Positions 3,414 to 41,808 of a stretch of DNA of 64,000 nt are shown here, piece after piece. Source of the DNA: Blautia sp. AF19-10LB (lineage in GTDB: Bacteria > Bacillota > Clostridia > Lachnospirales > Lachnospiraceae); contig NZ_QTWS01000008.1 of assembly GCF_003461245.1 (NCBI RefSeq), forward strand, positions 42,660 to 106,659. The letters run 5' to 3'. Position numbers and translations under genes: made by a program. The stretch's first letter is position 1. The number at the start of each line of letters is the position of its first letter. The notes below the pieces were generated by a model. The model saw nothing but the letters and a program-made list of their open reading frames with translations, searched no databases and had not been told where the DNA came from.

Positions 3414-3451
3414 AATCAGGCAGTCGGCGAGTTCGACTGATTATATCAAAT

Positions 3452-3535: not shown

Positions 3536-3538
3536 TTT

Positions 3539-3557: not shown

Positions 3558-3568
3558 CATATTGAAAT

Positions 3569-3652: not shown

Positions 3653-3682
3653 TTCTTTTTTTGTCTTAATATGGTAAATAAT

Positions 3683-15624: not shown

Positions 15625-15625
15625 A

Positions 15626-17491
15626 TTATTTCTCCTTATTCTCCATTCCCCGGATCGGACGAAGGGAGTAATTCCATTTGGTCAGAGACAGATTCTTGTT
15701 ATAGTAAGGATCACCTTTCCTGAGGATGTCGATCCACTGACAGCGCATGTATTCAATTTCTTCCTGAAAACGTCTGACCTTCGCCTCGCTGTCCTCTGCA
15801 CCTCTCGTCTTGGATTCCATATGATATAACTGAACATATGGATCATACACGATCAGACTTCCATTCTTACGAACTTTCAGACACAGATCCACATCGTTAA
15901 ATGCAACAGACAGTTTCTCTGTAAATCCGCCTGCTTCCTCAAATGCACTGCGCTTCATCATCATGCACGCCGCAGTCACAGCACTCATATCCTGAAGGAT
16001 CGAAGCCTTGTGGAGATACCCGGTTCTGTTCGCCGGCATGTCAACAAACATATGGCCTGCAATGCCGCCGATACCGATCACACAGCCTGCATGCTGGATC
16101 GTATTGTCCGGATAGATCAGCTTCACGCCGACCACCCCGACCTCTCCTCGCTGGCAGACACCGAGCATTTCTTTGATCCAGCCCGGTGTGATCACCGTCA
16201 CATCATTGTTAAGGAACAGTAAGTAATCGCCCTTTGCATGGCGGACACCATAGTTGTTGATGGCAGAATAGTTGAATTCCTTCTTCCATCTGAGCAGACG
16301 GATCTTTGGATCTCTGGAGAGTTCTTTGTAATAATGAAAAATCTCCTCGGAAGTACTGTTATTCTCAATGATCAGGATCTCGTAATTCTGATATTCTGTT
16401 TTTTCCCTGATGGATTCTATGCATGCCTGTAAGGATTCCTTCTCATCCTTATTTGGGATGATGATAGAAACCATAGGCTCTCCGTGGACCGGATATTTCA
16501 CGCGGAAAAATCCAAGATCCGGTGTATGGCTTACTTCACCCTCTACGCCCACGCGCTTGAGGTGTGCTTCGATTGCTCTTTTGCCTGCATCAAACGCATA
16601 CATCTTGCTGGCAGGATTATCTGCAGTCGATGCCTTGTGTGTACGCCAATGATAAACGATCTCCGGTACATGTCCGACTCTGCCGGAAGCTTCCTCCACA
16701 CAGCGGAAAATAAAGTCATGATCCTGTGCCCCGTCAAATTCCTGACGGAAACCGCCGACCTTATCCACGATAGTCTTGCGGACTACAAAAAAGTGGCAGA
16801 TATAGTTGTTGGACCTCAGGAGATCCAGGTTGAAATCCGGTTTCAGATGAGGCTGGAAATGTTCACTTAAGTCTGTTGTGACCTTGTCCTCGTCTGTGTA
16901 AACGGCATCCAGTTCTCTGTCCTCATTGAGTTTCTTAACGATCTCATAAAGGGCATTCGGTGCCAGAAGGTCATCGTGATCCAGAAGACCCACAAACTCT
17001 CCTGATGCCATCGTAAGTGCCGCATTGGTATTTCCTGCGATTCCCAGATTCTCGCCCAGATCTCTGACGCAGATCCTCCGATCTGCTGACGCATATTCCT
17101 TAAGGATGGCTGTCATCTCCGTATCATCCGGACTTCCATTTGCAATACAGAGTTCCCAGTTCGGATAGGTCTGGTCAAGAAGTGACTGGATCATCTGGCG
17201 CAGAAAAACCTCCGGTGTACGGAATGCCGGCACAGCAACACTGATCCGCGGTGTGTATGCAAACTTATGTTTCTTCTGCTTCTCAAGTTCCGCCTTATCC
17301 GGAATATACGCTTCATACCACGGACCATAGGGAACTTCTTCCGGCTCAAAACGTTCATGGAGACGGATCCAGAATTCCTTCGGTCCATAGTGCTTCAGAT
17401 AGCGGAAGCCCTTCTGGATCGTGTAGGGATTCAGTTTCTTGAGCATGCGTCCCCACTGGATCCCGCCTCCTGCCTGTTGTTTTTTATTCAT
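15626..17491 (-). CDS. Two-domain (tandem) GT2 glycosyltransferase
   Basis: 621 residues with two GT-A domains. The first (about 83-320) starts ISVAVPAFRTPE and has LLDHDDLLAPNALYE; the second (about 343-590) starts VSIIIPNKDEKESL and has LLFLNNDVTV and VAFNDVDLCLKVR. A short positively charged N-terminus precedes them. The layout matches the two large GTs at 22426 and 24893, which are paralogues. Two active sites in one chain suggest alternate addition of two sugars or linkages. It heads the operon running left to the LCP gene. The 222 bp upstream show no clear promoter. Confidence 0.88.
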   Translation of the reverse strand: MNKKQQAGGGIQWGRMLKKLNPYTIQKGFRYLKHYGPKEFWIRLHERFEPEEVPYGPWYEAYIPDKAELEKQKKHKFAYTPRISVAVPAFRTPEVFLRQMIQSLLDQTYPNWELCIANGSPDDTEMTAILKEYASADRRICVRDLGENLGIAGNTNAALTMASGEFVGLLDHDDLLAPNALYEIVKKLNEDRELDAVYTDEDKVTTDLSEHFQPHLKPDFNLDLLRSNNYICHFFVVRKTIVDKVGGFRQEFDGAQDHDFIFRCVEEASGRVGHVPEIVYHWRTHKASTADNPASKMYAFDAGKRAIEAHLKRVGVEGEVSHTPDLGFFRVKYPVHGEPMVSIIIPNKDEKESLQACIESIREKTEYQNYEILIIENNSTSEEIFHYYKELSRDPKIRLLRWKKEFNYSAINNYGVRHAKGDYLLFLNNDVTVITPGWIKEMLGVCQRGEVGVVGVKLIYPDNTIQHAGCVIGIGGIAGHMFVDMPANRTGYLHKASILQDMSAVTAACMMMKRSAFEEAGGFTEKLSVAFNDVDLCLKVRKNGSLIVYDPYVQLYHMESKTRGAEDSEAKVRRFQEEIEYMRCQWIDILRKGDPYYNKNLSLTKWNYSLRPIRGMENKEK

Positions 17492-18997: not shown

Positions 18998-19048
18998 AAA
19001 CCAGAAAATCAGCGGTGTGCCCTCAAGCACCCGCTGATTTTCTGGTTT
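18998..19048. terminator. Strong bidirectional terminator between DacA-like gene and yfhO
   Basis: An 18-bp perfect stem (18998-19015 with 19031-19048; core CCAGAAAATCAGCGG) and a 15-nt loop. On the plus strand it is followed by TTTTATTCTTT. The plus-side arm also codes the last residues of the minus-strand YfhO, whose stop codon (19023-19025) lies in the loop, so coding and termination signals overlap. Confidence 0.88.
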
Positions 19049-21560
19049 TATTCTTTCGTATGATCAGGAGCCTGCTCTGTGCAAACAAGATCCAGAACAG
19101 CACACTTCCTATCGTGCCTGCCTTTAATCCCGGTGCCTCGAAGGTAAGAAGGATCGTATGATCTCCCTCTGGCACTTCACATGCAAGGAATCCGATATCG
19201 CCGCGGAGCAGTTCCGCTTTTTCTCCATCGATCGTGAGACTCCAGCCTTTTTCATATGGGATCATAAACAGGGCATATCCATCTGCTTCTGCATGGACAC
19301 TTCCTGTCACAACAGAGTCTTTCTGCGGCGCATCCAGCGTCACGGAAGAATTTTGCTCTGCTGTCTCCTGCTCCTCGGGTTTGAGTGTCTGGATCTCAGA
19401 TGCATCTCCGATCTCCGTTCCATCCTCCAGGGCGATCGCCTCTCCGAGAAGTTCTTCCCTGTTCTCCTCTGTGCAGAGTTCCTTAAGGCTCTCCTCTGAA
19501 ATATCCTGCGTATAGAAATGCGCTGTCTGTGCATCCAGTACATTCTCATGGATATAAAGACTTCCCACCTGATCCAGCAGCTTATATTTTGTCTCGTCCG
19601 GTTCTCCGTTTCCGGAAAGGATGTATTTCACGCCCAGGAAAGCAGCCAGCCAGTTATCGTCCACATTGTTCCAGAACGTATAATGATTGTGATCTGCAAA
19701 AAACAGTTCCGGATAACAGGTCTCGACAAATTCTTTGACATTTCCGTTCATGACAGAATTATAAGTCGAAATCCCGCGGTATCCCTGCCCGGAAGAATCC
19801 ATCGAAACAGTTCCCGAAATATAATCTTTCTCTACACGGTAGAACGTCGGATCCTTTTCTTTGAGATAGTTCAGGCAGTCCGCAAGATCGACACGGTACA
19901 TCTCCCGGAAAAAATCCTGCGGTTTCTCGATCTCTGCGCGGTATTTTATCTCCTTGTCATCAGAAGTCCGCATCTCCTCATAGCGCTGTGTTTCCTGCAC
20001 CATCACTTCTGCCGGAACATCTGTCTTTTTCATGGTGACGCGGTTCTGATAATTTGTTCCGCCCTCAGAAACCACGTTCACGACAAGCACAACGCCCATA
20101 ACTCCTAGGATCACATTTCTTATCTGTATATCCTTCAGGAAACAGAGCAGCGTCAGGCAGACGGCTGTCAGAATTCCTGTGACGGTCAGGATCAGGATAT
20201 TTGTCCTGTATTCCTGGAAACCCGCCTGCTCATATCCGCACCAGTATGCCCAGCCCATGAGGGCAGTCACCGCAAGAATCAGCACAAGGTTCAGCTTGCC
20301 GCCTTTTCGCATGTAATCCCGCATCCACGCCATCAAAAGCAGAAAGACCGTCATCAGCACAAATGTATAACGCTGTGTCGGCAGTGTGAAGTAATTAAAG
20401 ACCGTTCCTCCGACCGGGAGTGCAGTTCCGACAAGGATCAGGGCAGCCACTCCATAGAGTACTCTTTTTGCCCGCTTCGTCATGTCTGCTTTTCGGAGGA
20501 CTGCAAGAAACTGCACATTCAGAAAAACAGCCAGCGTTGAGCAGAAAAGGACTGGATCTTCGTAATAGTTCATCACATACTGCTGCGGTCCTTTTGCCAG
20601 TCCGTAACCGTTCTGTAAGTTGCTTGAGAACATTCTCTTGAGCATGGACAGATAAAACTTCCTTGAATATGGCGTAAAACACTGACGCAGGAAATCAAGG
20701 AGCCCTGTTCCATCGCTTTCCAGTCTGGAAGACACATTCAGGAGAACTTCTGCCATCGGAAGGAACACGACAAGGCTCATTCCCACGCCCATGATCATCT
20801 CCGCGCAGCCGAGCAGAAATCTCTGTATCCTCTCTTTCCAGGTAAGTCCGTCCAGCATCAGGATCCGGAAAAGCAGATACAGCCCGGTCGCCGCCAGGCA
20901 CATGTATGTAAAGTACACGCTGTAGATCCCGCACAGGAATACCATGACCGGAAACAGTGCCTTTCCTTTCTTTTTCTGGATGAACTTCTCACAGAAAAGA
21001 AGCATCAGCGGAAAATAGATCACGACCGTTCCAAACTGGTAATGCTGCCCCCACACCAGGAGAAACCCATTCAGCGCATAAGCATAAGACGTGATCATCT
21101 TTGACGGCACGCTGAAAGAAAACTGTGACAGAAACCAGTAAAAAGCAAACGCCGCCACCATGATCTTGAGGATCTGAATGACATTGATATACAGAAGCAT
21201 ATGTGCCGGTCCCAGAACAACACCGACTCCATAAAGCAGCATCAGGAACGGATCAAACAGGTTAAAGTTAAACTGGTTGATCCCCAGCCCGTTATTAAAA
21301 TCCCAGAGGGAAAAGCTGCCGTCCCGCAGATGGTTCACAATGCTGGTATAGTTCATGATGTACTGCTGCCAGGTATCACTTCCGATATCGTTGAAGATCA
21401 TCAGGTCATTTCCATATAAATAATCCCGGAATATAAAACTACAGCTTGCACTCAGCAGCAGAAATAAAAAACAAAGCGCCCTCACATCAGGGCTTTGACA
21501 AAATCCGGACAGCTTCTGCACTGTCCGGATCTTTGAGCTTGATTTCATCTTTTCTTTCAT
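19023..21560 (-). CDS. YfhO-family polytopic membrane protein (GT-C type)
   Basis: 845 residues. About a dozen or more membrane segments occupy the first ~510 residues. The first outside loop contains the acidic motif NDLMIFNDIGSDTW. A large outside domain (~515-815) and a final membrane helix near the end (GSVLFWILFAQSRLLII) follow. In Bacillus and Listeria, YfhO works with a CsbB-type GT2 and a small flippase to glycosylate wall polymers outside the cell. Here an ArnC-like GT2 and two small EmrE-like proteins are encoded at 35618-37304, which could supply its lipid-linked sugar. It follows rmlD by 4 bp. Substrate specificity is inference. Confidence 0.87.
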   Translation of the reverse strand: MKEKMKSSSKIRTVQKLSGFCQSPDVRALCFLFLLLSASCSFIFRDYLYGNDLMIFNDIGSDTWQQYIMNYTSIVNHLRDGSFSLWDFNNGLGINQFNFNLFDPFLMLLYGVGVVLGPAHMLLYINVIQILKIMVAAFAFYWFLSQFSFSVPSKMITSYAYALNGFLLVWGQHYQFGTVVIYFPLMLLFCEKFIQKKKGKALFPVMVFLCGIYSVYFTYMCLAATGLYLLFRILMLDGLTWKERIQRFLLGCAEMIMGVGMSLVVFLPMAEVLLNVSSRLESDGTGLLDFLRQCFTPYSRKFYLSMLKRMFSSNLQNGYGLAKGPQQYVMNYYEDPVLFCSTLAVFLNVQFLAVLRKADMTKRAKRVLYGVAALILVGTALPVGGTVFNYFTLPTQRYTFVLMTVFLLLMAWMRDYMRKGGKLNLVLILAVTALMGWAYWCGYEQAGFQEYRTNILILTVTGILTAVCLTLLCFLKDIQIRNVILGVMGVVLVVNVVSEGGTNYQNRVTMKKTDVPAEVMVQETQRYEEMRTSDDKEIKYRAEIEKPQDFFREMYRVDLADCLNYLKEKDPTFYRVEKDYISGTVSMDSSGQGYRGISTYNSVMNGNVKEFVETCYPELFFADHNHYTFWNNVDDNWLAAFLGVKYILSGNGEPDETKYKLLDQVGSLYIHENVLDAQTAHFYTQDISEESLKELCTEENREELLGEAIALEDGTEIGDASEIQTLKPEEQETAEQNSSVTLDAPQKDSVVTGSVHAEADGYALFMIPYEKGWSLTIDGEKAELLRGDIGFLACEVPEGDHTILLTFEAPGLKAGTIGSVLFWILFAQSRLLIIRKNKTRKSAGA

Positions 21561-21564
21561 CAGT

Positions 21565-22413
21565 TTACATAATTTCCTTCAGATAACGTCCAAGAGCATC
21601 TTTCCAGTCCGGAAGACGGGTAAATCCATGCTCGTCGAGTTTCTTCTTCTCCATACGGCTGTTGGACGGACGTTTTGCCTTTGCCGGATATTCCGCAGAA
21701 CTTACCGGGAGGACTTTGACATTCATACCTGCCTGAGCGAAGATCTCTTTTGCAAAATCATACCAGGAAATGTAGCCGCCTTCATTTGTTGCATGGTATT
21801 TGCCGTACTCTTCTTTTTCCAGCATATCTACAAGAAGTCTTGCAAGGTCGTAGGTGTAAGTCGGTGTACCGATCTGGTCATTTACAACAGTCAGGGTATC
21901 ATGTGTTTTGCCAAGATTGATCATGGTCTTGATGAAGTTTTTGCCGTTCAGTCCGAATACCCATGCAATACGCACGATGTAGTGCTTCGGAGCATATTTT
22001 TCCACGGCAACTTCACCTTCGTATTTGGACTGTCCATAGACATTCAGCGGCTCTACGACTGGATCATCCGGCTCCCACGGGCGGATTCCCTGTCCGTCAA
22101 ACACATAGTCTGTGCTGATGTATATCATCGGAATGTCGAGTTTTCCACACATCTTTGCAATATTTGCTGTTCCATCCACATTTACTTTGTGGCAGACCTC
22201 CTGGTTATCCTCCGCTGCATCCACAGCAGTCCACGCTGCACAGTGGACAACTTTATCCGGATGAACTTCTGAGATCACTTTTTCTACGGCCGCGCTGTCT
22301 GTGATGTCCATCTCGGCAACATCAACGCCGACTCCTTCGTAGCCTCTTTTTGCCAGCTCGTTCATTACATCATAGCCAAGCTGTCCTTTTACGCCTGTTA
22401 CTAATACTTTCAT
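21565..22413 (-). CDS. rfbD: dTDP-4-dehydrorhamnose reductase
   Basis: Last step of dTDP-L-rhamnose synthesis: NAD(P)H reduction of dTDP-4-keto-rhamnose. 282 residues, a standard length. It shows the Rossmann motif VTGVKGQLG (6-14), the short-chain dehydrogenase YxxxK as YGQSK, and STDYVFDG. The other three rhamnose genes are nearby but dispersed: rfbC and rfbA at 31722-33171 and rfbB at 40726. It lies between the tandem GT2 at 22426 and yfhO. Confidence 0.95.
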   Translation of the reverse strand: MKVLVTGVKGQLGYDVMNELAKRGYEGVGVDVAEMDITDSAAVEKVISEVHPDKVVHCAAWTAVDAAEDNQEVCHKVNVDGTANIAKMCGKLDIPMIYISTDYVFDGQGIRPWEPDDPVVEPLNVYGQSKYEGEVAVEKYAPKHYIVRIAWVFGLNGKNFIKTMINLGKTHDTLTVVNDQIGTPTYTYDLARLLVDMLEKEEYGKYHATNEGGYISWYDFAKEIFAQAGMNVKVLPVSSAEYPAKAKRPSNSRMEKKKLDEHGFTRLPDWKDALGRYLKEIM

Positions 22414-24892: not shown

Positions 24893-27310
24893 TCAGTCTT
24901 CTCTCAGGGAACAGTCCCCTTCTGTCACAGAAAGATTCGGGCTGTAATACGGGTCCTCCATCTCAAGCTGCTGCGCCCATTTCTCCTGGAATCTCTTTAC
25001 TTCTTTGTCAAAGCGGAACTGTTTTTCCGGTGTATCTTCCAGTCCTCTTGATTTTGATTCATAGTGATACAGTTCTGCATACGGTGTAAAAATGATCTTC
25101 TTTCCTGCCGCACGGAATTTCATGCACAGATCGATATCATTAAATGCCACCTGGAAAGTCTCATCAAGACCGCCCACGGCATCAAAATCGGATTTCTTTA
25201 CCATCATGCACGCCGCTGTCACCGCACTGATCTCCTGCACGCTGATCATACGTCCAAAATAGCCCGGGTCTTCTTTCGATGCACGGCACATGATATGGCC
25301 TGCGATGCCTCCAAGTCCCAGGACAACACCCGCATGCTGGATCGTATCATCCGGGTAATAAAGCTTCGCTCCCACAGCCGCCACGTTTTCCTGCTGGCAG
25401 TTCTGGAGCATTTCTTCCATCCAGTCCGGTGTCAGGATCTCCACATCGTTGTTCAGGAAAAGAAGATACTCTCCCTTCGCTTCCTTCGCAGCGAAATTGT
25501 TGATCGCGGAATAGTTGAATTCTTTTTCCCAGGTCAGTACCCTCGCCTTCGGATAACGGTCCGGGAGTTTTCTGTAATATTCAAAGGTTTCTTCCTTCTC
25601 GCTGTTGTTCTCTACGATCAGGATCTCATAATTGCGATATGTTGATTTCCGTGTCATGGAAAACAGGCACAGCTCCAGATCATCTGTATGATCTTTGTTC
25701 GGAATAATGACAGAAATAAGTGGATTTCCCTGAACCTTCACATGGCTTCGATACCAGCCAGGACGTTCTGTCATCTCCACCTTCGCATCGATGCCCAGTC
25801 TCTGGTAATGCTCACGGACGGCTTTTCTTCCTGCTTCATATGCGTATGCCTTGCTGGAAGGATCTGCCGCTGTGGAGTCCATGTGGCATCTCCAGTGATA
25901 CAGCACTTTCGGGATATGCGTGATCTTCTGCGCCTTTTCGCAGCAGCGTAAGATAAAATCAAAATCCTGCGCGCCGTCAAATTCAGACCGGAGAAGTCCC
26001 GTTTCGTCTGTCAGGCTTTTTTTCACAACAAAAATATGACATATATAGTTGTTTTCCCTCAGACGGAACAGGTTAAAGTCAGGTTTGAAATTCGGGTCAA
26101 AGTAATGCCGGCCGTCCATGCTGACCTTATCCTCATCGGTATAAAGCACATCGGCACCTGTATCGTTGATCGCTTTGACGATCTCATAGAGAGCATCCGG
26201 TTCCAGGGTGTCATCGTGATCGCAGAGCATAAGATACTCGCCTGCTGCCAGCGCGACCGCCTCATTTGTGTTGACGGAGATCCCGCCATTCTCTTCCAGC
26301 TTGCGGTAAACAATACGTTTCTCTCTGCCGTAATGCTTCTCAATGAATTCTTTTGCCTTGTCATCCGGGCTTCCGTCTGCCAGGCAGAGCTGCCAGTTCT
26401 CATAGGACTGTCTGCGGACAGACTCCAGCAGTTCCTTAAGATAAGGAAGCGGTGTGCAGTACAGCGGAATCACAATGCTGATGAGCGGCTTCTGTGCAAA
26501 AGCAGCATGTTTCTGCCTGCGAAGGGTTCTCTTATCCACCTTATGGCGCGCAAGCCATGCTTCATATCCACCTTCTGCCACACTCTCTTTGCCAAAAAGC
26601 CTGCTTAAGAATCCTTTTGGTTTATTTTGTTTCCGAAGTTCCTCGATGTCAATCGTATATGTTTTGGTGACAGAATCACCACAGAAATGAAGAATGATCT
26701 CTCCGCCTTTGATCTCCGGAAGCGCCGCAGAGATCCGGAATCCGATCTCCTGCGTCTTATATTCCTCATCAAGATTCCTTCTCTCGACCACATCCGGTCT
26801 GCGTCCTCTGCTGATCCGGCAGTCCAGAAGTGATGCATCCTCCTGATGTACCGTCACTTCCACGCTTCCTCTCTGATCAACGACCCATCCCTGGATCTCC
26901 AGCATCGTATCATACAGGATCTCAACACAGTCCAGATGATATTGCACAAGATTTTCTTTGATCAATTCATCCAGTTCGTCTGCACTGATCTCCCAGATAC
27001 TGACACGTTCTTCACCGTCGCGGAGAAAAAGTTCCAGACTCTGATATTTCTCTGCCAGTTTCAGTATCTCCGGGATCTGAACGGTAAATCCCGGCAGAAA
27101 ATCCCCGAATTCACATCCAAGAGCCTGTGCGACATCCGGCCGCTCCCGTCTCTGGATCTCTGGCAGTTCTACCGTATCATAGCCATCTCCCAGAAGTTCA
27201 AATCCATATATTTTTCTGTCAGGATGTGAATACCATCCGTCCAGACTCAGCACATGACCATGTCTGTCATCGTAACGTTCTTCATCTATGCTGAAACAAA
27301 AATCACCCAT
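24893..27310 (-). CDS. Large tandem GT2 glycosyltransferase with duplicated N-terminal domain
   Basis: 805 residues. The N-terminal ~240 residues contain two related units, each with an Arg-Pro-Asp-Val signature: RRERPDVAQALGCEFGDFLPG (near 55-75) and RGRRPDVVERRNLDEEYKTQ (near 168-187). This is a domain often seen in front of clostridial polysaccharide GTs, and carbohydrate binding is plausible but unproven. Two GT2 domains follow (ISIVIPLYCTPLPYLKELL with LCDHDDTLEPDALYE; ISVIIPNKDHTDDL with LLFLNNDVEI). It is paralogous to the proteins at 22426 and 15626. A repeat element (27330-27471) separates it from the methyltransferase-kinase gene upstream. Confidence 0.88.
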   Translation of the reverse strand: MGDFCFSIDEERYDDRHGHVLSLDGWYSHPDRKIYGFELLGDGYDTVELPEIQRRERPDVAQALGCEFGDFLPGFTVQIPEILKLAEKYQSLELFLRDGEERVSIWEISADELDELIKENLVQYHLDCVEILYDTMLEIQGWVVDQRGSVEVTVHQEDASLLDCRISRGRRPDVVERRNLDEEYKTQEIGFRISAALPEIKGGEIILHFCGDSVTKTYTIDIEELRKQNKPKGFLSRLFGKESVAEGGYEAWLARHKVDKRTLRRQKHAAFAQKPLISIVIPLYCTPLPYLKELLESVRRQSYENWQLCLADGSPDDKAKEFIEKHYGREKRIVYRKLEENGGISVNTNEAVALAAGEYLMLCDHDDTLEPDALYEIVKAINDTGADVLYTDEDKVSMDGRHYFDPNFKPDFNLFRLRENNYICHIFVVKKSLTDETGLLRSEFDGAQDFDFILRCCEKAQKITHIPKVLYHWRCHMDSTAADPSSKAYAYEAGRKAVREHYQRLGIDAKVEMTERPGWYRSHVKVQGNPLISVIIPNKDHTDDLELCLFSMTRKSTYRNYEILIVENNSEKEETFEYYRKLPDRYPKARVLTWEKEFNYSAINNFAAKEAKGEYLLFLNNDVEILTPDWMEEMLQNCQQENVAAVGAKLYYPDDTIQHAGVVLGLGGIAGHIMCRASKEDPGYFGRMISVQEISAVTAACMMVKKSDFDAVGGLDETFQVAFNDIDLCMKFRAAGKKIIFTPYAELYHYESKSRGLEDTPEKQFRFDKEVKRFQEKWAQQLEMEDPYYSPNLSVTEGDCSLRED

Positions 27311-27329
27311 TCTACATCCTCTTAATTCC

Positions 27330-27471
27330 GTAACTGTTCAGTACCCTCACAGTTACGAGTCAAAATGCATTCCAAATCACCTTCGGTGATGGCATTTTGC
27401 CTTGTATGTCTCGGGATTTTGGCAAAAACATGCCAAAACACCTCGCGGGATACTACCTACTGAATAGTTAC
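27330..27471. repeat. MITE-like palindromic intergenic element
   Basis: 142 bp bounded by 14-bp inverted repeats with one mismatch: GTAACTGTTCAGTA (27330-27343) and TACTGAATAGTTAC (27458-27471). Inside are nested hairpins: CAAAATGC...GCATTTTG around ATCAC-cttcg-GTGAT (27361-27399), and TTTTGGCA/TGCCAAAA (27417-27438). One end abuts the stop codon of the methyltransferase-kinase gene. There is no coding capacity. Terminal inverted repeats plus internal structure suggest a non-autonomous mobile repeat; as RNA it could also be a terminator or stability element. A second genomic copy is needed to prove mobility. Confidence 0.65.
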
Positions 27472-29652
27472 TTAACTTTTTTTAATGATTCGGTACAGCT
27501 TCCAGACTTTTGTGTTTTCCATCTGCTGTATTTTCTGGTTCAGTCTCTGGATCTCCTGCTCTTTCTGTGAAGATACCTGTGAGAATTTCTGCCAGAATTC
27601 TTCCCTTGCTTCCTGCTCTTTCAATACTTCAATCTCGATATCCAGAGTTTTGCCCTGAACATGCTCAATGATAAACTGCGGGTCACCGGCTCCGAAATAA
27701 TATCTTCCATCGCCCATGTCAAATCCGTTACTGTAAAAAACAGCCTTGCTGCCATCATCAAAGGCAAGTCTGTGAAGGAGAAGTCCTCCTGCTGCCTCAC
27801 CAGGATCAAGTCTCAGACGTTTTGCATCCTTCGAAATCGGAATCTTCAGAGAAAGTCCGGTCTTCGCCATCGGATAGACGGCTGAATCGCTTTCGTTGAA
27901 ATCATTTCCTCTGTCATAAAATACCTGCAGTTTCCGCTCTGCACCTGCGATCCGGAGCTGCTCATAATAAGACAGTACATCAACTTTGCCCGGTGAAACA
28001 TCCTCATACATGTCAAGAAGCGGTACATGGCTGCCCTTGATATAATTCTGGAAATTACGCTCCATTGCAGCATAGATCTCCAGTTCTTTCTCTGTCAGAC
28101 CTGCCTTCGTATAGAAATCCATATCCTTGAGCGCACGGCGCTTGCCGTCACTTTCCAGATAATAATGGATCATCCTGTAAATGATAAAGTTGCCCGGGAT
28201 CGGGAAACGGAACGTCCACTCGTAATCGATCACGGAAATCCTGTCATTGTCGATCAGGATATTTGCCGGAACCAGATCGATATTGGAAATTCCACTACAG
28301 GAAAGTGTTCCTTCCTGTGAAACATTTCCGAATACTTTGACAAATTCCGGTGTTTTATAAAAAGCTTCTCCACTGTGGATCCGGCGTACCTTCTCAACAT
28401 AACGGAACAGAAGCTTCTCTGCCTCTTCGTTTCTGCCCTGTTCTACCAGCGCATCGAGATGTTCTTCCAGCGTCTTTCCCTTGAGGAATTCCAGACGGAC
28501 ACCCTGTTTTTCCAGTATGCACTGGTTCAGTTCCAGACCTTCTTTGGCATAGATCCTTGCCATCTCTCTGGAAAGGGATTCCAGATTCCGTACATGTTTC
28601 TCTGCTGTAGTTTCTGTCGGAACTTTTCGAACAAAACGATCTTTTTTGCCTTCTTTGCAGATATCGGTACGAAGGGCGAATTCCGATGATCTCTCATTGG
28701 AAAATTTGGAATATACCGTTGCGATCTCCGGCTTTTCCCTGCCGATCAGAAGAAGGAACGAATTGGAAAACTCCGGGAACAGATCATTGTCCAGAAGAGA
28801 ATCATATACTGGTGACTCCTGGAAAAGCTGCAGGCGCAGTCTGTCATAATTCGTCTCCAGCCTGTTCAGTTCGCCCTTGAACGGAAGACGCTCATCAGAA
28901 TAGATCGTCATTGGAAGTTTGTAGTCCGGAAATGGATAATACCAGGATGCTTTGAGGTCCCCTGCCTCTCGTAAGATGGCATTGAATTCCTTCTTCGTAA
29001 AGGTCTTGACACCTTTTGTCGTCGGATATCCTTCCAGTCCTTCAAAAAGCGTTCCGAAATGATCTTCTGTACAGCCCGCCCAGTATTTCAGTCCAAAACG
29101 GTTTTCGATCGCAAGGACGATCTTGCCGTCCGGTTTGAGATGTCTGGAAATGATCTTCAGGAAATCTACATAAGGAGTACTGCTCTGAATATAAGCCTCT
29201 CCATATTCAAATACACCGATCAGCGTGATGTAATCATACTTTTCGGTAAGATTTTTCTCAATATCCTGAAAGTTGCCCATAAGAATCTTAAGATTATCAA
29301 AGTCCTTATGTCTGTTGGCATTGATCAGGCTTCTCTTGCGTGACAGTTCGATGCAGGTCACGCTCTTTGCCTTCTTGCACAGTGCGCCAGTCACTGCGCC
29401 GCAGCCGGAACCGATCTCCAGGACATTTTCTTCTCCTGTGAATGGAAGCCAGCTTAAGATATTTTCTCTGATATGTGAAAAATGATACAGGATCGGCCAG
29501 CTTTTGCGCTCTGCGATCACCTGATTCCATTTTTCTTCTGGATAAGTCCTGGCGATCTCCAGCATCTCATCTTCGATCGCACCGTCTGTATATAAATCTT
29601 TTCCCGGATAATACGTGTCATCCAGCACAACCTGTCCTATTTTTTCACTCAT
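27472..29652 (-). CDS. Methyltransferase-kinase fusion with C-terminal coiled coil, WbdD-like chain terminator
   Basis: 726 residues. A class I SAM methyltransferase domain (~40-310) has the SAM loop VLEIGSGCG (77-85). A protein/sugar-kinase-like domain (~320-580) has K343 (VRK), catalytic loop D459-L-V-P-A-N464, and metal-binding D476 in IDYEW. A beta-rich domain (~575-670) precedes a short coiled coil (~672-714) and a basic end KVWKLYRIIKK. In E. coli O9a, WbdD (methyltransferase, kinase, coiled coil) caps the polymer and sets its length before ABC export. The same order, directly next to an ABC exporter, supports a similar capping role. Its start overlaps the Wzt stop by 4 bp (ATGA). The phosphate/methyl acceptor is unknown. 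Confidence 0.82.
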   Translation of the reverse strand: MSEKIGQVVLDDTYYPGKDLYTDGAIEDEMLEIARTYPEEKWNQVIAERKSWPILYHFSHIRENILSWLPFTGEENVLEIGSGCGAVTGALCKKAKSVTCIELSRKRSLINANRHKDFDNLKILMGNFQDIEKNLTEKYDYITLIGVFEYGEAYIQSSTPYVDFLKIISRHLKPDGKIVLAIENRFGLKYWAGCTEDHFGTLFEGLEGYPTTKGVKTFTKKEFNAILREAGDLKASWYYPFPDYKLPMTIYSDERLPFKGELNRLETNYDRLRLQLFQESPVYDSLLDNDLFPEFSNSFLLLIGREKPEIATVYSKFSNERSSEFALRTDICKEGKKDRFVRKVPTETTAEKHVRNLESLSREMARIYAKEGLELNQCILEKQGVRLEFLKGKTLEEHLDALVEQGRNEEAEKLLFRYVEKVRRIHSGEAFYKTPEFVKVFGNVSQEGTLSCSGISNIDLVPANILIDNDRISVIDYEWTFRFPIPGNFIIYRMIHYYLESDGKRRALKDMDFYTKAGLTEKELEIYAAMERNFQNYIKGSHVPLLDMYEDVSPGKVDVLSYYEQLRIAGAERKLQVFYDRGNDFNESDSAVYPMAKTGLSLKIPISKDAKRLRLDPGEAAGGLLLHRLAFDDGSKAVFYSNGFDMGDGRYYFGAGDPQFIIEHVQGKTLDIEIEVLKEQEAREEFWQKFSQVSSQKEQEIQRLNQKIQQMENTKVWKLYRIIKKS

Positions 29653-30905
29653 TTTTCTTCTCCGTATTGTATCTCTACCTGTGAATCCATGTCATAAAAA
29701 CCTACGGTGTTCTGTTCGGAAACAACCGTGATGTTGCATGCATCATAAAGTCTGTGGAATACCGTGAATTCTCCATCCTTGTATCCCGTGCAGCCAAATG
29801 CGAGCAGATACTCTCCACCCTGAAGGAACATCTTCTGTGTGAAAGTCACCGTACAGGTGTCACCTTCATCCGAATGCTCGATATGCATCTTTTCGAACAT
29901 GGTATTGGTTCCGGTGATCTCCGTACCCTTGATATCCTTGAAAGTATATGCCATGATCGGCTCCTGGATCGCCTCGTGGAACACAGCTTTCATGCGGATC
30001 TGGAAGGAACTTCCTTTCTCGATGGTATTCGTGGATCTGCCCTTGTCATCGATCACGGCAAAGTCTGTGATCTCCGCAAGCTTACTGCCATATTCCAGCA
30101 TGTTCGGATTGACCTGGAATTCTTCACTCCAGCTTTCCTTCGGCTTCTCTTCCTGCACCTGCTGCTTCGTCGGGTCCTGCCCGACCAGAAGCTGCTTGTA
30201 CATATCTACCATCTGCTTCGGTGATCCCTCTTCCAGCTTCACACCCTTGTTCAGAAGAACGACCCTGTCACAGTATCTCGCGATACTGCTCAGATCATGG
30301 CTTACAAAAAGGATGGTCCTTCCCATCTTCTTGAATTCTTCGAACTTACGGTAGCATTTTGCCTGGAAGAAAACATCTCCTACAGAAAGTGCCTCATCTA
30401 CGATCAGGATCTCCGGATCGATATTGATCGCCACTGCAAAAGCAAGGCGGACAAACATACCGCTTGAATATGCCTTGACCGGTTGGTGAACAAAATCTCC
30501 GATATCAGCAAAATCCAGAATATCCTGCAGACGGGAATCAATTTCTTCTTTTGAAAATCCCATCATGGTTCCGTTGAGATAAACGTTTTCGATCCCTGTG
30601 TATTCCATATTGAATCCGGCTCCCAGCTCAAGAAGTGCTGAGATACGTCCATCTACCGTCACTTCGCCGCCGGTAGGATTCAGTACGCCTGTGATGATCT
30701 TAAGGATCGTGGATTTACCGGAACCATTTGTTCCGATGATTCCCACGGTCTCGCCCCTTCGGACCTCAAAGCTCACATCGCGGAGCGCATAATGCTCCCG
30801 CACCGGAACCTTGAACCCCAGTGCCTCTTTGAGACGGTCTGAGGGTTTGTTATATAATTTGTACATCTTGTCCAGATGTTTTACCTGAATTGCAAATTCA
30901 CTCAT
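29649..30905 (-). CDS. wzt: Polysaccharide ABC exporter ATPase with C-terminal polymer-recognition domain (Wzt-like)
   Basis: 418 residues. The nucleotide-binding domain (1-~245) has Walker A GTNGSGKST (58-66), signature YSSGMFVRLAFA and Walker B ILIVDEAL. Residues ~270-418 form an added beta-sandwich-like domain. In Wzt proteins that use capped O-antigens this domain binds the modified chain end; that function is carried over by analogy. The start is the ATG at 30905, with GGAG 7 nt in front and 13 bp after the permease stop; the ten codons before it have no ribosome site. It is coupled to the methyltransferase-kinase gene. Confidence 0.92.
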   Translation of the reverse strand: MSEFAIQVKHLDKMYKLYNKPSDRLKEALGFKVPVREHYALRDVSFEVRRGETVGIIGTNGSGKSTILKIITGVLNPTGGEVTVDGRISALLELGAGFNMEYTGIENVYLNGTMMGFSKEEIDSRLQDILDFADIGDFVHQPVKAYSSGMFVRLAFAVAINIDPEILIVDEALSVGDVFFQAKCYRKFEEFKKMGRTILFVSHDLSSIARYCDRVVLLNKGVKLEEGSPKQMVDMYKQLLVGQDPTKQQVQEEKPKESWSEEFQVNPNMLEYGSKLAEITDFAVIDDKGRSTNTIEKGSSFQIRMKAVFHEAIQEPIMAYTFKDIKGTEITGTNTMFEKMHIEHSDEGDTCTVTFTQKMFLQGGEYLLAFGCTGYKDGEFTVFHRLYDACNITVVSEQNTVGFYDMDSQVEIQYGEEK

Positions 30906-30918
30906 TTTACTCTCCATG

Positions 30919-31725
30919 TTACAGTACATCTGCAAAGTGTACCTGAAGTTTTTTGAACAGTCTGGTTCCGAAGATAAATACTGCCAGCGTGAATACCCAG
31001 AAATAAAGTGTCAGTACAGGGTGGTCCCAGATCGCCACTTTGTTTATCAGGGAGTCACGATACCCCTGGACAATATAAAACAGCGGATTCAGTTTGAGTA
31101 TTTTCTGAAGGATCCCGCCAAGCCCGAGATCATTGAAGTCCCACATGATCGGAGTCACCCAGACACCTACTTGCAGGGCAATGTTGATGATCTGGCTTAA
31201 GTCGCGGAAAAATACGACTGCCGCACTTGTCATATAAGTCACAGCAAGGATCAGCATAAAAATACAGAAACTGTAGTACACAAGCTGCAGGGCGTACAGG
31301 CTCGGCGGGTATCCCATGCAGGTGTAGATCACCAGAACGATCACTACAAAAAAGCAATGGACAAACACCGCTGAAAATACCTTTACTACCGGCAGGATGC
31401 GGATATTGAATACCACTTTCTTGACCAGATAATTGTATTCCAGAAGTGCATTCGTTCCACCCGTCAGTCCCTCCTGGAAGAAAAACCACGGGATAAGACC
31501 TGCGATCAGCCAGAGTACAAACGGAACGCCCTTGTCAGAACCATTCCGAAGTGCCAGACCAAACACAAACCAGTAGACACAGATCGTAACGATCGGCTGG
31601 ATAAACGCCCATACTGTTCCGAAATAGGAACCGGCATATTTTGTTTTGAAATCATTTTTTGCCAGAGAAAAGACTAATCTTCTGTTTCTGTAGATTTCTC
31701 CAGGCAGCCAGGTATTTTTATTCAA
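30919..31725 (-). CDS. wzm: Polysaccharide ABC exporter permease (Wzm-like, ABC-2 family)
   Basis: 268 residues with about six membrane helices. The typical start is NDFKTKYAGSYFGTVWAFIQP, and the family region LNPLFYIVQGYRDSLI lies near the end. It exports undecaprenyl-pyrophosphate-linked polysaccharide together with the ATPase encoded next. Its first codon overlaps the stop of rfbC by 4 bp. No Wzx flippase or Wzy polymerase is seen in the window, which agrees with the ABC route. Confidence 0.93.
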   Translation of the reverse strand: MNKNTWLPGEIYRNRRLVFSLAKNDFKTKYAGSYFGTVWAFIQPIVTICVYWFVFGLALRNGSDKGVPFVLWLIAGLIPWFFFQEGLTGGTNALLEYNYLVKKVVFNIRILPVVKVFSAVFVHCFFVVIVLVIYTCMGYPPSLYALQLVYYSFCIFMLILAVTYMTSAAVVFFRDLSQIINIALQVGVWVTPIMWDFNDLGLGGILQKILKLNPLFYIVQGYRDSLINKVAIWDHPVLTLYFWVFTLAVFIFGTRLFKKLQVHFADVL

Positions 31726-32291
31726 TCCTTTTTACCCCTGTTTGCAGTGTATTCCTTGAAGCTTCCCCATTTCTGGTCTTTGTCAGAAAGAATCAGTTCC
31801 ATATCCTCCGGGATCGGCCACTGTACGCCGATGTCAGGATCATTGTATGCAAGTCCACCCTCATCATTCGGATGATAGAAGTCTGTACATTTGTATGCGA
31901 ACTCTGCTGTATCAGAAAGTACAACAAATCCGTGTGCAAAATTCTTCGGGATGAAGAACTGTTTCTTATTCTCAGCAGACAGAACAACACCGTACCACTG
32001 TCCATAAGTCTCAGAACCTTCTCTCAGATCAACGGCAACATCAAACACTTCTCCGCTTACAACACGTACAAGCTTGTCCTGCGGATAGTTGATCTGGAAA
32101 TGAAGTCCGCGGAGAACGCCCTTGCGGGAGCTTGACTGGTTATCCTGAACGAATCCCATGTCGATTCCTGCTGCCTTGTAATCATTGTAATTGTATGTTT
32201 CCATGAAATAACCGCGTTCATCTCCGAATACAGTTGGTGTGATGACCTTAAGTCCTTCGATATGACAGGTTTCTACTGTGATCTTACCCAT
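31722..32291 (-). CDS. rfbC: dTDP-4-dehydrorhamnose 3,5-epimerase
   Basis: 189 residues, a usual length for RmlC. Cupin fold with DERGYFMETYN, the catalytic His region LRGLHFQINYPQDKLV, and the Tyr/Asp region KCTDFYHPNDEGGLAYNDP. Converts dTDP-4-keto-6-deoxyglucose to the L-rhamno form. The start is 1 bp after rfbA, and the end overlaps the permease by 4 bp. Sugar supply and export are thus on one transcript. Confidence 0.96.
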   Translation of the reverse strand: MGKITVETCHIEGLKVITPTVFGDERGYFMETYNYNDYKAAGIDMGFVQDNQSSSRKGVLRGLHFQINYPQDKLVRVVSGEVFDVAVDLREGSETYGQWYGVVLSAENKKQFFIPKNFAHGFVVLSDTAEFAYKCTDFYHPNDEGGLAYNDPDIGVQWPIPEDMELILSDKDQKWGSFKEYTANRGKKD

Positions 32292-32292: not shown

Positions 32293-33171
32293 TTATAATC
32301 CCTCCGCTACTTCGATCAGATATTTGCCATAGGCAGTCTTGAGAAGCGGCTGTGCCAGTTCGACAAGCTGCTCTTTTGTGATAAATCCACGTTTGTACGC
32401 GATCTCCTCGATACAGGAAATATAAAGTCCCTGACGTTTCTGGAATGCCGCAACGAAATCTGCCGCATCAAGAAGAGAATCATGGTTTCCTGTATCCAGC
32501 CATGCAAATCCTCTTCCAAGAGTTTCTACTTTAAGAGTTCCTCTTCTCAGGTATTCGTTGTTGATGCTGGTGATCTCGATCTCGCCTCTTGCGGACGGTT
32601 TCACGCTCTTTGCGATCTCTACAACATCATTGTCATAGAAATAAAGCCCCGGAACTGCATAGTTTGACTTCGGATGCTCCGGTTTTTCTTCGATGGAAAG
32701 GGCTCTGCCGTTTTCATCAAATTCTACAACACCGTATTCTCTCGGGTCTCTTACATAGTAGCCGAAAATAATTGCTCCCTTTTCTTCCTCTGTACGCTTG
32801 TAAGCATTCAGAAGTACTCTGGAGAAGCTCTGTCCATAGAAGATATTGTCTCCGAGGACAAGTGCCACTGCATCATTGCCGATAAAGTCAGCACCGATGA
32901 TGAACGCATCTGCCAGTCCTCTTGGCTGTTCCTGCACTGCATATTCAAATCTCATGCCAAGCTGCTTACCATCTCCGAGCAGTTCACGGAATACCGGAAG
33001 GTCACGTGGTGTGGAGATGATCAGGATCTCACGGATCCCTGCAAGCATCAGAGTTGACAGTGGATAATAGATCATCGGTTTGTCGTATACCGGCATGATC
33101 TGTTTGGAAATTGCTTTGGTCAGCGGATATAATCTGGTTCCGGAGCCGCCTGCTAAAATAATACCTTTCAT
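32293..33171 (-). CDS. rfbA: Glucose-1-phosphate thymidylyltransferase
   Basis: 292 residues. Makes dTDP-glucose, the shared precursor of dTDP-rhamnose and dTDP-4-amino-sugars. Shows the nucleotidyltransferase signature [17 protein letters not shown] (8-24), [11 protein letters not shown] and [10 protein letters not shown]. Normal full length. It feeds both rfbB/C/D and the WecE-type transaminase in this locus. There is a 32-bp gap to the upstream carboxypeptidase gene. Confidence 0.96.
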
Positions 33172-35617: not shown

Positions 35618-36559
35618 TTACCTCTTTTCTTCTTCGGATGTGATATTTGCCTTATCCCGGATCACGTACTGAGGAGTCCTGTTGATATTCAGCATCAGCT
35701 TACCGAGATATTCTCCGATGATTCCGAGCATCAGGAATGCAATTCCAAAGAGCACCAGCATCGCGCACATCAGAGAAGACCAGCCAATCGCGATCGTCGG
35801 ATCCAGAAGCTTACGGACCAGTACAACGATTGCCCCGATAAAGCCAGCCGCTGAAAACAATGTTCCGAAAAATGTCGACACACGGAGCGGGATCACTGTA
35901 AAATTCAGGCAGGAAAGAAACAGATTCAGTCCCTTGCGGAAGTTATAGTTAGACGTTCCTACCTCACGTTCAAAGTGCTCGATCTCGATATTGGCAATAT
36001 TATGTGTTGTGCGGAAAAACAGTACCTGAAGGAAGATATTGTATCCATCATACTTCACGATCTCATCACGCACATAACGGCGGCAGCACCAGAAACTGCT
36101 CATCTGGATATCCTTCGGACGGTCCAGCAGATGCCACAGAAGAAATCTGCTGACTGCTCCTGTCAGATTCTTGAATGCAGAAAACTTTCGTTCTTTGAAC
36201 ACGCCGAATACAATGTCATATCCCTCCTGGATCTTGTCCAGAAAAAGTGGAATCTGCGACGGATGGTTCTGCATGTCATCATCCATTCCAATGATCAGAT
36301 CTCCCTCCGTATGATTCATAGCCGCCATGATCGCATTGTGCTGTCCGAAATTCTTGGCAAGGTTGATTCCCTTGACATTCGGATGTTTCTCTGCCAATGC
36401 ATGGATTGCATTCCACGTTCCATCCCTGGAATAATCGTTGACCAGCACAAATTCACACTCGTAGTCTTTCAGTTTCTCAAATTCTTCTATAGCCAGTTCT
36501 ACCACTTTGCCGATGGTATGTTCTGAATTATAGCATGGTATGACAATGGATACCAGCAT
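35618..36559 (-). CDS. Polyprenyl-phosphate glycosyltransferase (GT2, ArnC/GtrB/CsbB-like)
   Basis: 313 residues. GT-A domain with VSIVIPCYNSEHTI, VNDYSRDGTW and the metal site GMDDDMQNHP, followed by two C-terminal membrane helices (~230-255 and 265-290) that mark polyprenyl-phosphate sugar transferases. Such enzymes load a sugar onto undecaprenyl phosphate inside the cell. Directly downstream is wecE, and directly upstream are two small EmrE-like proteins. This copies the ArnC plus ArnE/ArnF logic, with dTDP-Fuc4N as the likely donor (inference). Confidence 0.9.
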   Translation of the reverse strand: MLVSIVIPCYNSEHTIGKVVELAIEEFEKLKDYECEFVLVNDYSRDGTWNAIHALAEKHPNVKGINLAKNFGQHNAIMAAMNHTEGDLIIGMDDDMQNHPSQIPLFLDKIQEGYDIVFGVFKERKFSAFKNLTGAVSRFLLWHLLDRPKDIQMSSFWCCRRYVRDEIVKYDGYNIFLQVLFFRTTHNIANIEIEHFEREVGTSNYNFRKGLNLFLSCLNFTVIPLRVSTFFGTLFSAAGFIGAIVVLVRKLLDPTIAIGWSSLMCAMLVLFGIAFLMLGIIGEYLGKLMLNINRTPQYVIRDKANITSEEEKR

Positions 36560-37304: not shown

Positions 37305-37319
37305 GTTATTCTCTCACAA

Positions 37320-38507: not shown

Positions 38508-38509
38508 GC

Positions 38510-40630: not shown

Positions 40631-40648
40631 GATTATCCTTTCTAACAT

Positions 40649-40725: not shown

Positions 40726-41808
40726 TTATTTGGTTTTGTACATTTCGTTGTAATATTTCTGATAGTCACCACTGGTAACATTCTTCATCCAGTCCTCATG
40801 CTCAAAGAACCACTGGATCGTCAGGCGAATTCCATCCTCAAAACATGTCTCCGGATACCAGCCAACTTCTTCTTTGATCTTGTCCGGTGCGATCGCATAA
40901 CGACGGTCATGACCCTTGCGGTCCTCTACGTAAGTGATCAGGTTTTCGCTTACGAGTTCTTTACGCGGATCTCCCTCCGGAAGCATTTCCTGAAGAGTAT
41001 CAAGAATGATATGGATGATCTGGATATTCTGTTTCTCATTGTGTCCGCCGATGTTATATGTCTCGAACAGACGTCCCTTCTCCTGTACCATGTCGATTCC
41101 CTTGGCATGATCCATAACATAGAGCCAGTCGCGGACATTCTTGCCGTCACCATATACCGGAAGCTTCTTGCCCTGGAGCGCATTGTTGATGATCAGCGGG
41201 ATCAGTTTCTCCGGGAACTGGTATGGTCCGTAGTTGTTACTGCAGTTTGTGATGTTTGCCGGGAATTTGTAGGTATCCATGTAGGATTTTACCAGCATAT
41301 CAGAGGATGCCTTGCTTGCAGAGTACGGGCTGTGCGGATCATATGGAGTTGTCTCATAGAAAAAGCCGCCATCTTCCTCGAGGGAGCCGTATACTTCGTC
41401 TGTGGATACATGAAGGAATTTCTTGTCCGGTTTAAAGGTTCCATCCGGAAGTTCCCATGCAGATTTGGCTGCATTCAGCATGACCAGAGTACCAAGTACG
41501 TTTGTCTTGACAAAGACTTCCGGGTTACGGATGCTTCTGTCTACATGGCTCTCTGCTGCAAAATGAACGACACGGTCAATATCATTCTCATCAAAGATCT
41601 TCATGATAGCTTCGCTGTCGCAGATATCAGCCTTAACGAAAGTGTAGTTCTCTCTATTCTCAATGTCCTTGAGGTTCTCAAGGTTTCCTGCATACGTCAG
41701 CTTGTCTACATTGATGATACGGATCTCGTTGTCGTATTTCTGAAACATGTAATGAATGTAGTTGGAACCGATGAATCCGGCACCGCCTGTTACCAGGTAT
41801 GTTCTCAT
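40726..41808 (-). CDS. rfbB: dTDP-glucose 4,6-dehydratase
   Basis: 360 residues. Extended SDR enzyme with NAD motif VTGGAGFIGSNYI (6-18), active-site region VSTDEVYGSLE and YSASK (YxxxK). Makes dTDP-4-keto-6-deoxyglucose, the branch point to rhamnose (RfbC/D) and to the 4-amino sugar (WecE). The ribosome site AGGAGG (41819-41824) lies directly downstream of the terminator that follows the L,D-transpeptidase gene, leaving no room for a promoter between them. Confidence 0.96.
   Translation of the reverse strand: MRTYLVTGGAGFIGSNYIHYMFQKYDNEIRIINVDKLTYAGNLENLKDIENRENYTFVKADICDSEAIMKIFDENDIDRVVHFAAESHVDRSIRNPEVFVKTNVLGTLVMLNAAKSAWELPDGTFKPDKKFLHVSTDEVYGSLEEDGGFFYETTPYDPHSPYSASKASSDMLVKSYMDTYKFPANITNCSNNYGPYQFPEKLIPLIINNALQGKKLPVYGDGKNVRDWLYVMDHAKGIDMVQEKGRLFETYNIGGHNEKQNIQIIHIILDTLQEMLPEGDPRKELVSENLITYVEDRKGHDRRYAIAPDKIKEEVGWYPETCFEDGIRLTIQWFFEHEDWMKNVTSGDYQKYYNEMYKTK

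What the first reader, a model, noticed from the sequence alone, without database searches (positions are those of the whole stretch)
27472..31725. WbdD-like methyltransferase-kinase-coiled-coil protein beside an ABC exporter in a Gram-positive: capped wall polysaccharide
The 726-residue protein has, in order, a SAM methyltransferase, a kinase-like domain with intact catalytic residues (K343, D459, N464, D476), a beta-rich domain and a short C-terminal coiled coil. It is coupled by ATGA overlap to a Wzt-type ATPase with an extra C-terminal domain, followed by its permease. In E. coli O9a, WbdD caps the chain by phosphorylation and methylation, its coiled coil helps set chain length, and the Wzt C-terminal domain recognises the capped end. 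The same architecture here predicts end-capped, length-controlled, ABC-exported polymer that is then joined to peptidoglycan by an LCP protein. I know of no described Gram-positive example. The coiled coil is much shorter than in WbdD, which may mean short chains or another use.
Basis: partly seen in the sequence, partly recalled or inferred. Interest (0 to 1): 0.88.

Follow-up and report, generated by a model that had tools for sequence, protein, structure and literature searches.

The report
Sugar-chain end-capping enzyme, gut bacterium
A gut bacterium with a Gram-positive cell wall carries an enzyme that probably puts a phosphate-type cap on the end of a rhamnose-rich sugar chain so that the matching pump exports it; relatives of this enzyme are known from Gram-negative bacteria, and its presence here makes cap and chain-length control testable in common gut commensals.

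Summary
Observation confirmed: window 27472-29652(-) encodes a 726-aa protein (methyltransferase, kinase-like domain, beta-sandwich, short C-terminal helices), joined by ATGA to a Wzt with a cap-binding-type C-terminal domain, whose permease precedes it. The interpretation needs correcting. The better template is not WbdD but Klebsiella O7 ORF6, a methyltransferase-kinase shown in vitro to put methylphosphate on terminal rhamnose. A Pseudomonas protein carries six published ORF6 SAM-site residues at the published numbers; its family aligns to the window family over residues 20-634 (E 6e-60), and its second half matches the two neighbouring GT2 proteins. Wzt lies upstream in 70 of 71 loci with enough DNA; 118 of 298 sampled family genomes have the gene. 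Relatives split and fuse the modules. The ruler claim is not supported: the coiled coil is short, and tails vary from 15 to 114 residues. "No Gram-positive example" is too strong: Geobacillus (methyl) and C. difficile Ox247 (phosphate) have end-capped glycans assigned to ABC export. Most likely: an O7-type terminator for a rhamnose wall polymer, perhaps LCP-anchored. Kinase activity and cap chemistry are inferred.

The parts
27472..29652 (-). Methyltransferase-kinase-beta-sandwich protein with short C-terminal helices (726 aa); predicted chain terminator
   Evidence: ORF; Pfam MTase; model; conserved residues; profile match to Pseudomonas proteins of the O7-ORF6 layout
28738..29652 (-). MTase module, residues 1-305 (E79-x-G81-x-G83, Y21, Y56, E102, Y150)
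27937..28731 (-). Kinase-like module, residues 308-572 (K343, D459, N464, D476)
   Evidence: weak: 75; a separate gene or fused to GT2 in some relatives
27625..27936 (-). Beta-sandwich, residues 573-676 (comparable to the Ig-like CBM reported for O7 ORF6)
   Evidence: secondary structure; its first part aligned
27475..27618 (-). Short helix 679-712 and basic last helix 715-725 (W717 and Y720 invariant, K718 at least 90% in A1)
29649..30899 (-). Wzt-type ATPase with Wzt_C domain (ATG start at 30899 chosen; a TTG at 30935 is also open); ATGA overlap with the gene above
30919..31725 (-). Wzm-type permease
   Evidence: ABC2_membrane
24893..27310 (-). Dual GT2 protein (805 aa); its GT2 part is 42% identical to the C-terminal part of the fused Pseudomonas protein P0121
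22426..24870 (-). Dual GT2 protein (814 aa); 43% identical to the same part
21565..22413 (-). RmlD-like; assigned by reading the sequence, no family search run
   Evidence: query
31722..32291 (-). RmlC-like; assigned by reading the sequence, no family search run
   Evidence: query
32293..33171 (-). RmlA-like; assigned by reading the sequence, no family search run
   Evidence: query
40726..41808 (-). RmlB-like; assigned by reading the sequence, no family search run
   Evidence: query
13149..14552 (-). Initiating sugar-1-phosphate transferase (Bac_transf)
   Evidence: 1.2e-72
11597..13132 (-). LCP protein (LytR_cpsA_psr)
   Evidence: 5.7e-29
14671..17491 (-). Two GT2 genes (317 and 621 aa) of the same stretch
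19023..21560 (-). YfhO-family membrane protein, possible side-chain transferase
   Evidence: 6e-59
35618..36559 (-). GT2 nearest to PgfS and ArnC-type models (below their cut-offs)

Best explanation
The protein is a chain terminator that works like Klebsiella O7 ORF6. Inferred course: a rhamnose-rich chain is started on a lipid carrier by the Bac_transf enzyme and extended in the cytoplasm by the two dual-GT2 proteins from dTDP-L-rhamnose. The kinase module phosphorylates the non-reducing terminal sugar (most likely O-3 of rhamnose, as in O7) and the MTase module methylates that phosphate, which stops growth. The Wzt C-terminal domain recognises the capped end and Wzm/Wzt exports the chain; YfhO- and PgfS-like proteins may add side groups, and the LCP protein may join the chain to peptidoglycan. 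Shown here: predicted domains, conserved residues, gene linkage, homology. Shown by others for the O7 relative: the chemistry. Inferred for this organism: acceptor sugar, cap chemistry, need of the cap for export, LCP anchoring. Chain length is probably not set by a long coiled-coil ruler.
For: Profile-profile match of the window family (A1) to Pseudomonas MT-kinase-GT2 proteins (A2): E 6.4e-60, residues 20-634, with D459/N464/D476 on D443/N448/D461. The Pseudomonas protein P0121 has Y28, Y66, G91, G93, E112 and Y158, invariant among 22 aligned proteins, at the numbers printed for O7 ORF6. O7 ORF6 phosphorylates and partly methylates a terminal rhamnose in vitro, and D441A abolishes it. Linkage: wzt including its C-terminal domain within 3.5 kb upstream in 70 of 71 loci with that much DNA; gap at most 300 bp in 64; both Gram-negative relatives have wzm-wzt before the MT gene. 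Modules: of 80 loci, MT-kinase in one gene 63, MT-kinase-GT2 4, MT apart with kinase-GT2 5 and with a long kinase protein of unidentified C-terminus 1 (L072), MT and kinase as two genes 6 (L039 cut by its contig end), kinase not seen 1 (L020). At least 2 of 4 rml genes in 43 of 55 loci with 9 kb or more upstream and 10 kb or more from the gene start. WbdD is the top fold hit over 570 columns.
Against: Kinase fold is not proved by sequence: the kinase-region profile has no significant PDB match (best JAK1, E 0.14); Pfam Choline_kinase in 2 of 28 members, best 0.002, place in the protein not shown; no kinase family in any of 5 stand-alone kinase-region proteins. VIA rows are MTases only, one domain filling the list. 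WbdD superposes poorly as a whole (TM 0.19/0.29, rmsd 18). The kinase module folded alone without an alignment gave pLDDT 35 and tells nothing. K343 is His or Arg in the two Gram-negative relatives. The O7 ORF6 sequence itself was not obtained; the printed D441 is two residues off P0121's D443. L018 has no wzt upstream. A match to the window's LCP protein was found in 5 and to Bac_transf in 21 of those 55 loci, so LCP anchoring rests mainly on this window. No polysaccharide structure of this organism is known to me.
Confidence: 0.7

Rival explanations
1. It is a true WbdD: mannose-type kinase-methyltransferase with a coiled-coil ruler that sets chain length.
For: Same domain order; WbdD is the best Foldseek hit.
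Against: Rhamnose-type genes around it; no WbdD chain among the 60 rows shown; close to the O7 type; WbdD has residues 460-708 for its coiled-coil part, here one 34-residue helix.
Confidence: 0.05
2. Phosphate-only or cyclic-phosphate cap: the kinase caps and the MTase does something else, as would fit the 2,3-cyclophosphoryl rhamnose end of C. difficile Ox247.
For: A phosphate-type end on a rhamnose glycan with its own ABC transporter genes is published for a member of the Clostridia; MT and kinase are separate genes in some relatives.
Against: The SAM site is kept: G81 and G83 in 84 of 84 rows that reach them; MT and kinase genes stay side by side in the split loci.
Confidence: 0.2
3. Methyl-only cap: the MTase caps a sugar hydroxyl (as in E. 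coli O8 or Geobacillus) and the kinase-like domain only binds substrate.
For: No significant kinase match by sequence; a Wzt of this type binds a 3-O-methyl cap (PMC9445017, passages).
Against: D459 and N464 in 83 of 83 rows, D476 in 81; the corresponding domain of O7 ORF6 is an active kinase.
Confidence: 0.13
4. Not a terminator: it modifies side groups or works on a second polymer.
For: The window holds several other GT and possible decoration genes.
Against: Near-constant linkage to wzt with its C-terminal domain and fusion to GT2 modules in some relatives.
Confidence: 0.07

Closest known systems
Klebsiella pneumoniae O7 ORF6 (methyltransferase, kinase, CBM, coiled coil, two GT2); PMC11231755: abstract passages, first part of sections 11 and 13, other passages read
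   Same: Order of modules; SAM-site residues; catalytic Asp; wzm/wzt and rml genes in the cluster; GT2 pair
   Different: GT2 modules in separate genes here; coiled coil short; Gram-positive host with an LCP protein nearby; in the parts I read the paper names orthologs in alpha- and gammaproteobacteria, cyanobacteria and Methanoculleus. Its sequence was not compared directly
E. coli O9a WbdD; PMC3482155: abstract, Results and Discussion read
   Same: MT then kinase, terminator for an ABC-exported chain; top fold hit
   Different: Not in the PDB rows found by sequence; mannan; long C-terminal coiled-coil part
Pseudomonas asturiensis plasmid protein P0121 and Citrobacter braakii plasmid protein P0122 (uncharacterised)
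   Same: wzm-wzt-MT order; homologous MT and kinase-like region
   Different: P0121 is fused to two GT2; P0122 has no residue at the DP motif of the beta domain and Glu for D476
Geobacillus stearothermophilus WsaE with Wzm/Wzt; PMC2943079: passages read
   Same: Gram-positive, rhamnan with a terminal cap predicted to be bound by Wzt for export; overlapping wzm, wzt, wsaE
   Different: 2-O-methyl cap, no kinase mentioned; linked to S-layer protein
Clostridioides difficile Ox247 S-layer glycan; PMC6254364: abstract, passages, sections 5, 11, 12 and 14 read
   Same: Gram-positive, rml genes, ABC transporter genes, phosphate at the non-reducing terminal rhamnose
   Different: Reported as 2,3-cyclophosphate; capping enzyme not named in what I read; protein-linked
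Ruminococcus gnavus glucorhamnan; PMC12413058: section 12 and passages read
   Same: Lachnospiraceae rhamnose wall polysaccharide
   Different: No end cap described in what I read; presence of this gene there not tested

Membership tests
O7 ORF6-type methyltransferase-kinase terminator | N-terminal class I MTase with the published SAM-site residues | tested here: met
   Y21, Y56, G81, G83, E102, Y150 align with Y28, Y66, G91, G93, E112, Y158 of P0121, the numbers printed for ORF6; position 102 is Asp in 41 of 84 rows
O7 ORF6-type methyltransferase-kinase terminator | Kinase module with catalytic Asp, homologous in sequence | tested here: met
   Profile match runs through the module, D459 on D443 of P0121; tested against P0121's family, not ORF6 itself; activity not testable
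O7 ORF6-type methyltransferase-kinase terminator | Ig-like CBM after the kinase | tested here: inconclusive
   Beta-sandwich in the model; profile alignment ends inside it at residue 634; its fold was not searched alone
O7 ORF6-type methyltransferase-kinase terminator | Extended coiled coil (ruler) after the catalytic modules | tested here: not met
   One 34-residue helix; tails of 15-114 residues, median 53, in 66 rows. No coiled-coil predictor was run
O7 ORF6-type methyltransferase-kinase terminator | GT2 polymerase modules fused or adjacent | tested here: met
   Adjacent here; fused in 4 of 80 loci
O7 ORF6-type methyltransferase-kinase terminator | Methylphosphate on terminal rhamnose | not testable with these tools
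   Needs enzyme assay and NMR
WbdD (E. coli O9a) | Homology to WbdD | tested here: inconclusive
   Fold hit 4azs; not among the 60 rows shown of 64 by family profile
WbdD (E. coli O9a) | Long C-terminal coiled-coil part (residues 460-708 in WbdD) | tested here: not met
WbdD (E. coli O9a) | Phosphate-site residues H132, H133, R203 of the MTase | not tested
   WbdD sequence not at hand
Cap-dependent Wzm/Wzt exporter | Wzt with C-terminal carbohydrate-binding domain | tested here: met
   Wzt_C 1.6e-43; 8dku over residues 4-392
Cap-dependent Wzm/Wzt exporter | Export depends on the cap | not testable with these tools
   Needs mutants

The most novel reading that the evidence does not exclude
A large Gram-positive branch of kinase-methyltransferase terminators (in 118 of 298 sampled genomes of one family) caps rhamnose wall polysaccharides with a phosphate or methylphosphate that serves as export ticket, and stops growth without a coiled-coil ruler: chain length follows from competition between the terminator, held at the membrane by its basic tail, and its GT2 partners, whose modules have been fused and split several times. 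The phosphate end reported on the C. difficile Ox247 glycan would then be made by the same enzyme type.
Probability: 0.35. Interest if true: 0.65.

Novelty: new variant of a known kind. Interest (0 to 1): 0.52.

Why it matters
It would carry a termination-and-export check so far worked out mainly on Gram-negative O antigens into common gut commensals with a Gram-positive wall, give a testable account of how their wall-polysaccharide length is set, point to an end group that structural work on such polymers could have missed, and offer a gene for the phosphate end of a published Clostridia glycan whose capping enzyme was not named in the parts I read.

Tried and rejected
WbdD as closest relative: set aside in favour of the O7 type. 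Ruler function: not supported for this protein. Kinase by sequence alone: not reached; phmmer with the whole protein listed RIPK1 kinases at E 0.05. VIA comparison: MTases only; kinases are absent from that list, which one domain fills. The 'pdb' fold search was run once, on the whole model; no usable model of the kinase or beta-sandwich alone was made. E. coli genomes searched with the Citrobacter gene: no match. Whole genome of the window: none held. Rfam: two tRNAs only.

Ten literature searches: no listed title or abstract start described a Gram-positive methyltransferase-kinase terminator. The library is open-licence PMC only, so this is weak evidence of absence. Passages of PMC11754754 (S. 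mutans wall polysaccharide) and PMC6814731 (C. difficile RT023) gave no end cap and no cap enzyme.
Full report
What is there. On the minus strand lie, in transcription order, rmlA- and rmlC-like genes, a Wzm-type permease (30919-31725), a Wzt-type ATPase (29649-30899), the 726-aa protein of the finding (27472-29652), two dual-GT2 proteins (24893-27310, 22426-24870), an rmlD-like gene and a YfhO-family membrane protein (the rml names are my reading of the sequences). The 726-aa gene overlaps the stop of wzt by ATGA. Further along the same strand are two GT2 genes, an initiating Bac_transf enzyme and an LCP protein. The nearest named relatives are Blautia, so I infer a Gram-positive Lachnospiraceae host.

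Domains. Pfam sees only the methyltransferase. The AlphaFold2 model (28 sequences, pLDDT 85) adds a kinase-like domain, a beta-sandwich (573-676) and two short helices. D459, N464 and D476 are invariant in 28 sequences and present in 83, 83 and 81 of 83 rows of a wider set in which two proteins occur twice. Foldseek's best hit is WbdD over 570 columns, E 3.6e-11, just ahead of an MTase-only chain at 1.1e-10; as rigid bodies they superpose poorly (TM 0.19/0.29, rmsd 18). Direct sequence evidence for a kinase is weak: JAK1 at E 0.14, with the conserved Lys on the JAK1 'VAVK' Lys, RIPK1 at 0.05, Choline_kinase in 2 of 28, none in 5 stand-alone proteins.

The better template. The 2024 study of K. 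pneumoniae O7 (PMC11231755; first part of sections 11 and 13, and passages) describes ORF6: MTase, an unannotated kinase domain, an Ig-like CBM, a coiled coil, two GT2 modules. Full-length ORF6 phosphorylated and partly methylated a repeat-unit mimic at O-3 of its terminal rhamnose; D441A was inactive. tblastn with the window protein found two relatives among 72,556 plasmid records at E 1e-4: P. asturiensis P0121 (1457 aa, after wzm-wzt-type genes) and C. braakii P0122 (649 aa, rmlBACD genes, then an ABC permease and ATPase, then P0122). P0121 bears Y28, Y66, G91, G93, E112 and Y158, the six residues printed for ORF6, at the same numbers, and they are invariant in 22 aligned proteins, the named ones Pseudomonas. 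The window family matches that family from residue 20 to 634, E 6.4e-60. The C-terminal part of P0121 is 42-43% identical to the two window GT2 proteins. P0121 thus looks like the window terminator fused to a window-type GT2 protein. I did not have the ORF6 sequence itself.

Linkage and architecture. Of 71 with more than 3.5 kb upstream, 70 have wzt including its C-terminal domain within 3.5 kb; the gap is at most 300 bp in 64, 403 bp in one, and five have about 2.5 kb with one GT gene between. The exception, L018, has an unrelated ORF upstream. wzm was detected in 62 of 65 loci with more than 6.5 kb upstream (missed in L018, L021, L030), and a GT2 relative somewhere downstream on the same strand in 55 of 68 with more than 8 kb. 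Architectures over the 80 loci: MT-kinase in one gene 63; MT-kinase-GT2 4 (L014, L021, L029, L030); MT apart with kinase-GT2 5 (L013, L019, L025, L026, L036); MT apart with a 1419-aa kinase protein whose C-terminus did not match the window GTs 1 (L072); MT and kinase as two genes 6 (L037, L038, L074, L075, L078, and L039 cut by the contig end); kinase not seen 1 (L020, hidden in my ORF list). A quick tree of 82 kinase rows needs 9 changes of architecture at the least; its well-supported branches alone force fewer, 1 to 4 per class. At E 1e-50 the family is in 118 of 298 genomes of the family of the L001 Blautia genome and in 12 of 398 of its phylum, the centre genome counted in both.

The ruler. 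Klebsiella and E. coli terminators have an extended coiled coil held to measure the chain. Here the helix has 34 residues with about two clean heptads by eye (I701, L704, I708, M711), and among 66 unfused MT-kinase rows (the window, 63 loci, and the Citrobacter protein twice) the stretch after the conserved DP is 15-114 residues, median 53; some of the shortest values may be alignment slips. No coiled-coil predictor was run. A basic tail end is common by eye. I therefore do not file it as a ruler-type terminator; it may work like one in the other respects.

Gram-positive precedents. Geobacillus caps its S-layer rhamnan with 2-O-methyl rhamnose through WsaE, and Wzm/Wzt is predicted to bind and export it (PMC2943079, passages). 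C. difficile Ox247 carries a 2,3-cyclophosphoryl rhamnose end on a glycan with its own ABC transporter genes, and its authors suggest a role like that of the O9a phosphate (PMC6254364). Its orf10, labelled a glycosyltransferase, is by number next to the ABC genes; whether any ORF there holds an MT-kinase was not checked. Aquifex Wzt binds 3-O-methyl-capped ends (PMC9445017, passages); that 8dku is this protein is recalled.

Verdict. Observation confirmed; interpretation right in kind, wrong in template, ruler and priority. The most likely reading is an O7-type terminator, short of its ruler, on a rhamnose wall polymer. Confidence 0.70 for a phosphate-based cap made with the help of this protein; exact chemistry, export dependence and LCP anchoring are inferences (LCP relatives were seen in 5 and Bac_transf relatives in 21 of 55 loci). 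On re-checking I lowered this from 0.72 because one of the fused architectures (L072) proved unidentified and LCP linkage is thin.

Noticed in passing
27311-27471: The stretch between the terminator and the first GT2 gene is a palindromic element (RNA fold z -3.5) with near-complementary ends; about 30 bases of one end recur in L042, L044 and L052, suggesting a small mobile or repetitive element inside the operon.
   Followed up: partly
17714-18979 (+) and 33204-34472 (-): Two D-Ala-D-Ala carboxypeptidase genes (Peptidase_S11) with similar N-terminal stretches lie on either side of the terminator genes.
   Followed up: no
36580-40663 (-): ATP-grasp domain fused to a PLP-dependent (PALP) domain, then a second ATP-grasp with an L-amino-acid-ligase C-terminal domain and two half-size EamA proteins; perhaps an amino-acid decoration pathway inside the cluster.
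   Followed up: no
41869-44493 (-): YkuD L,D-transpeptidase domain with choline-binding-type repeats.
   Followed up: no
3451-3653 (+): Two tandem tRNA-Leu (cag) genes.
   Followed up: no
61959-63317 (+): Protein with HTH_38 that looks like an IS30-type transposase (name recalled).
   Followed up: no
L060: A bin named Gastranaerophilales (Melainabacteria) carries a locus that sits among Lachnospiraceae in the tree; misbinned contig or transfer.
   Followed up: no
L018:8241-9872: The one locus of 71 without wzt: an unrelated ORF lies directly upstream of an open terminator gene.
   Followed up: partly
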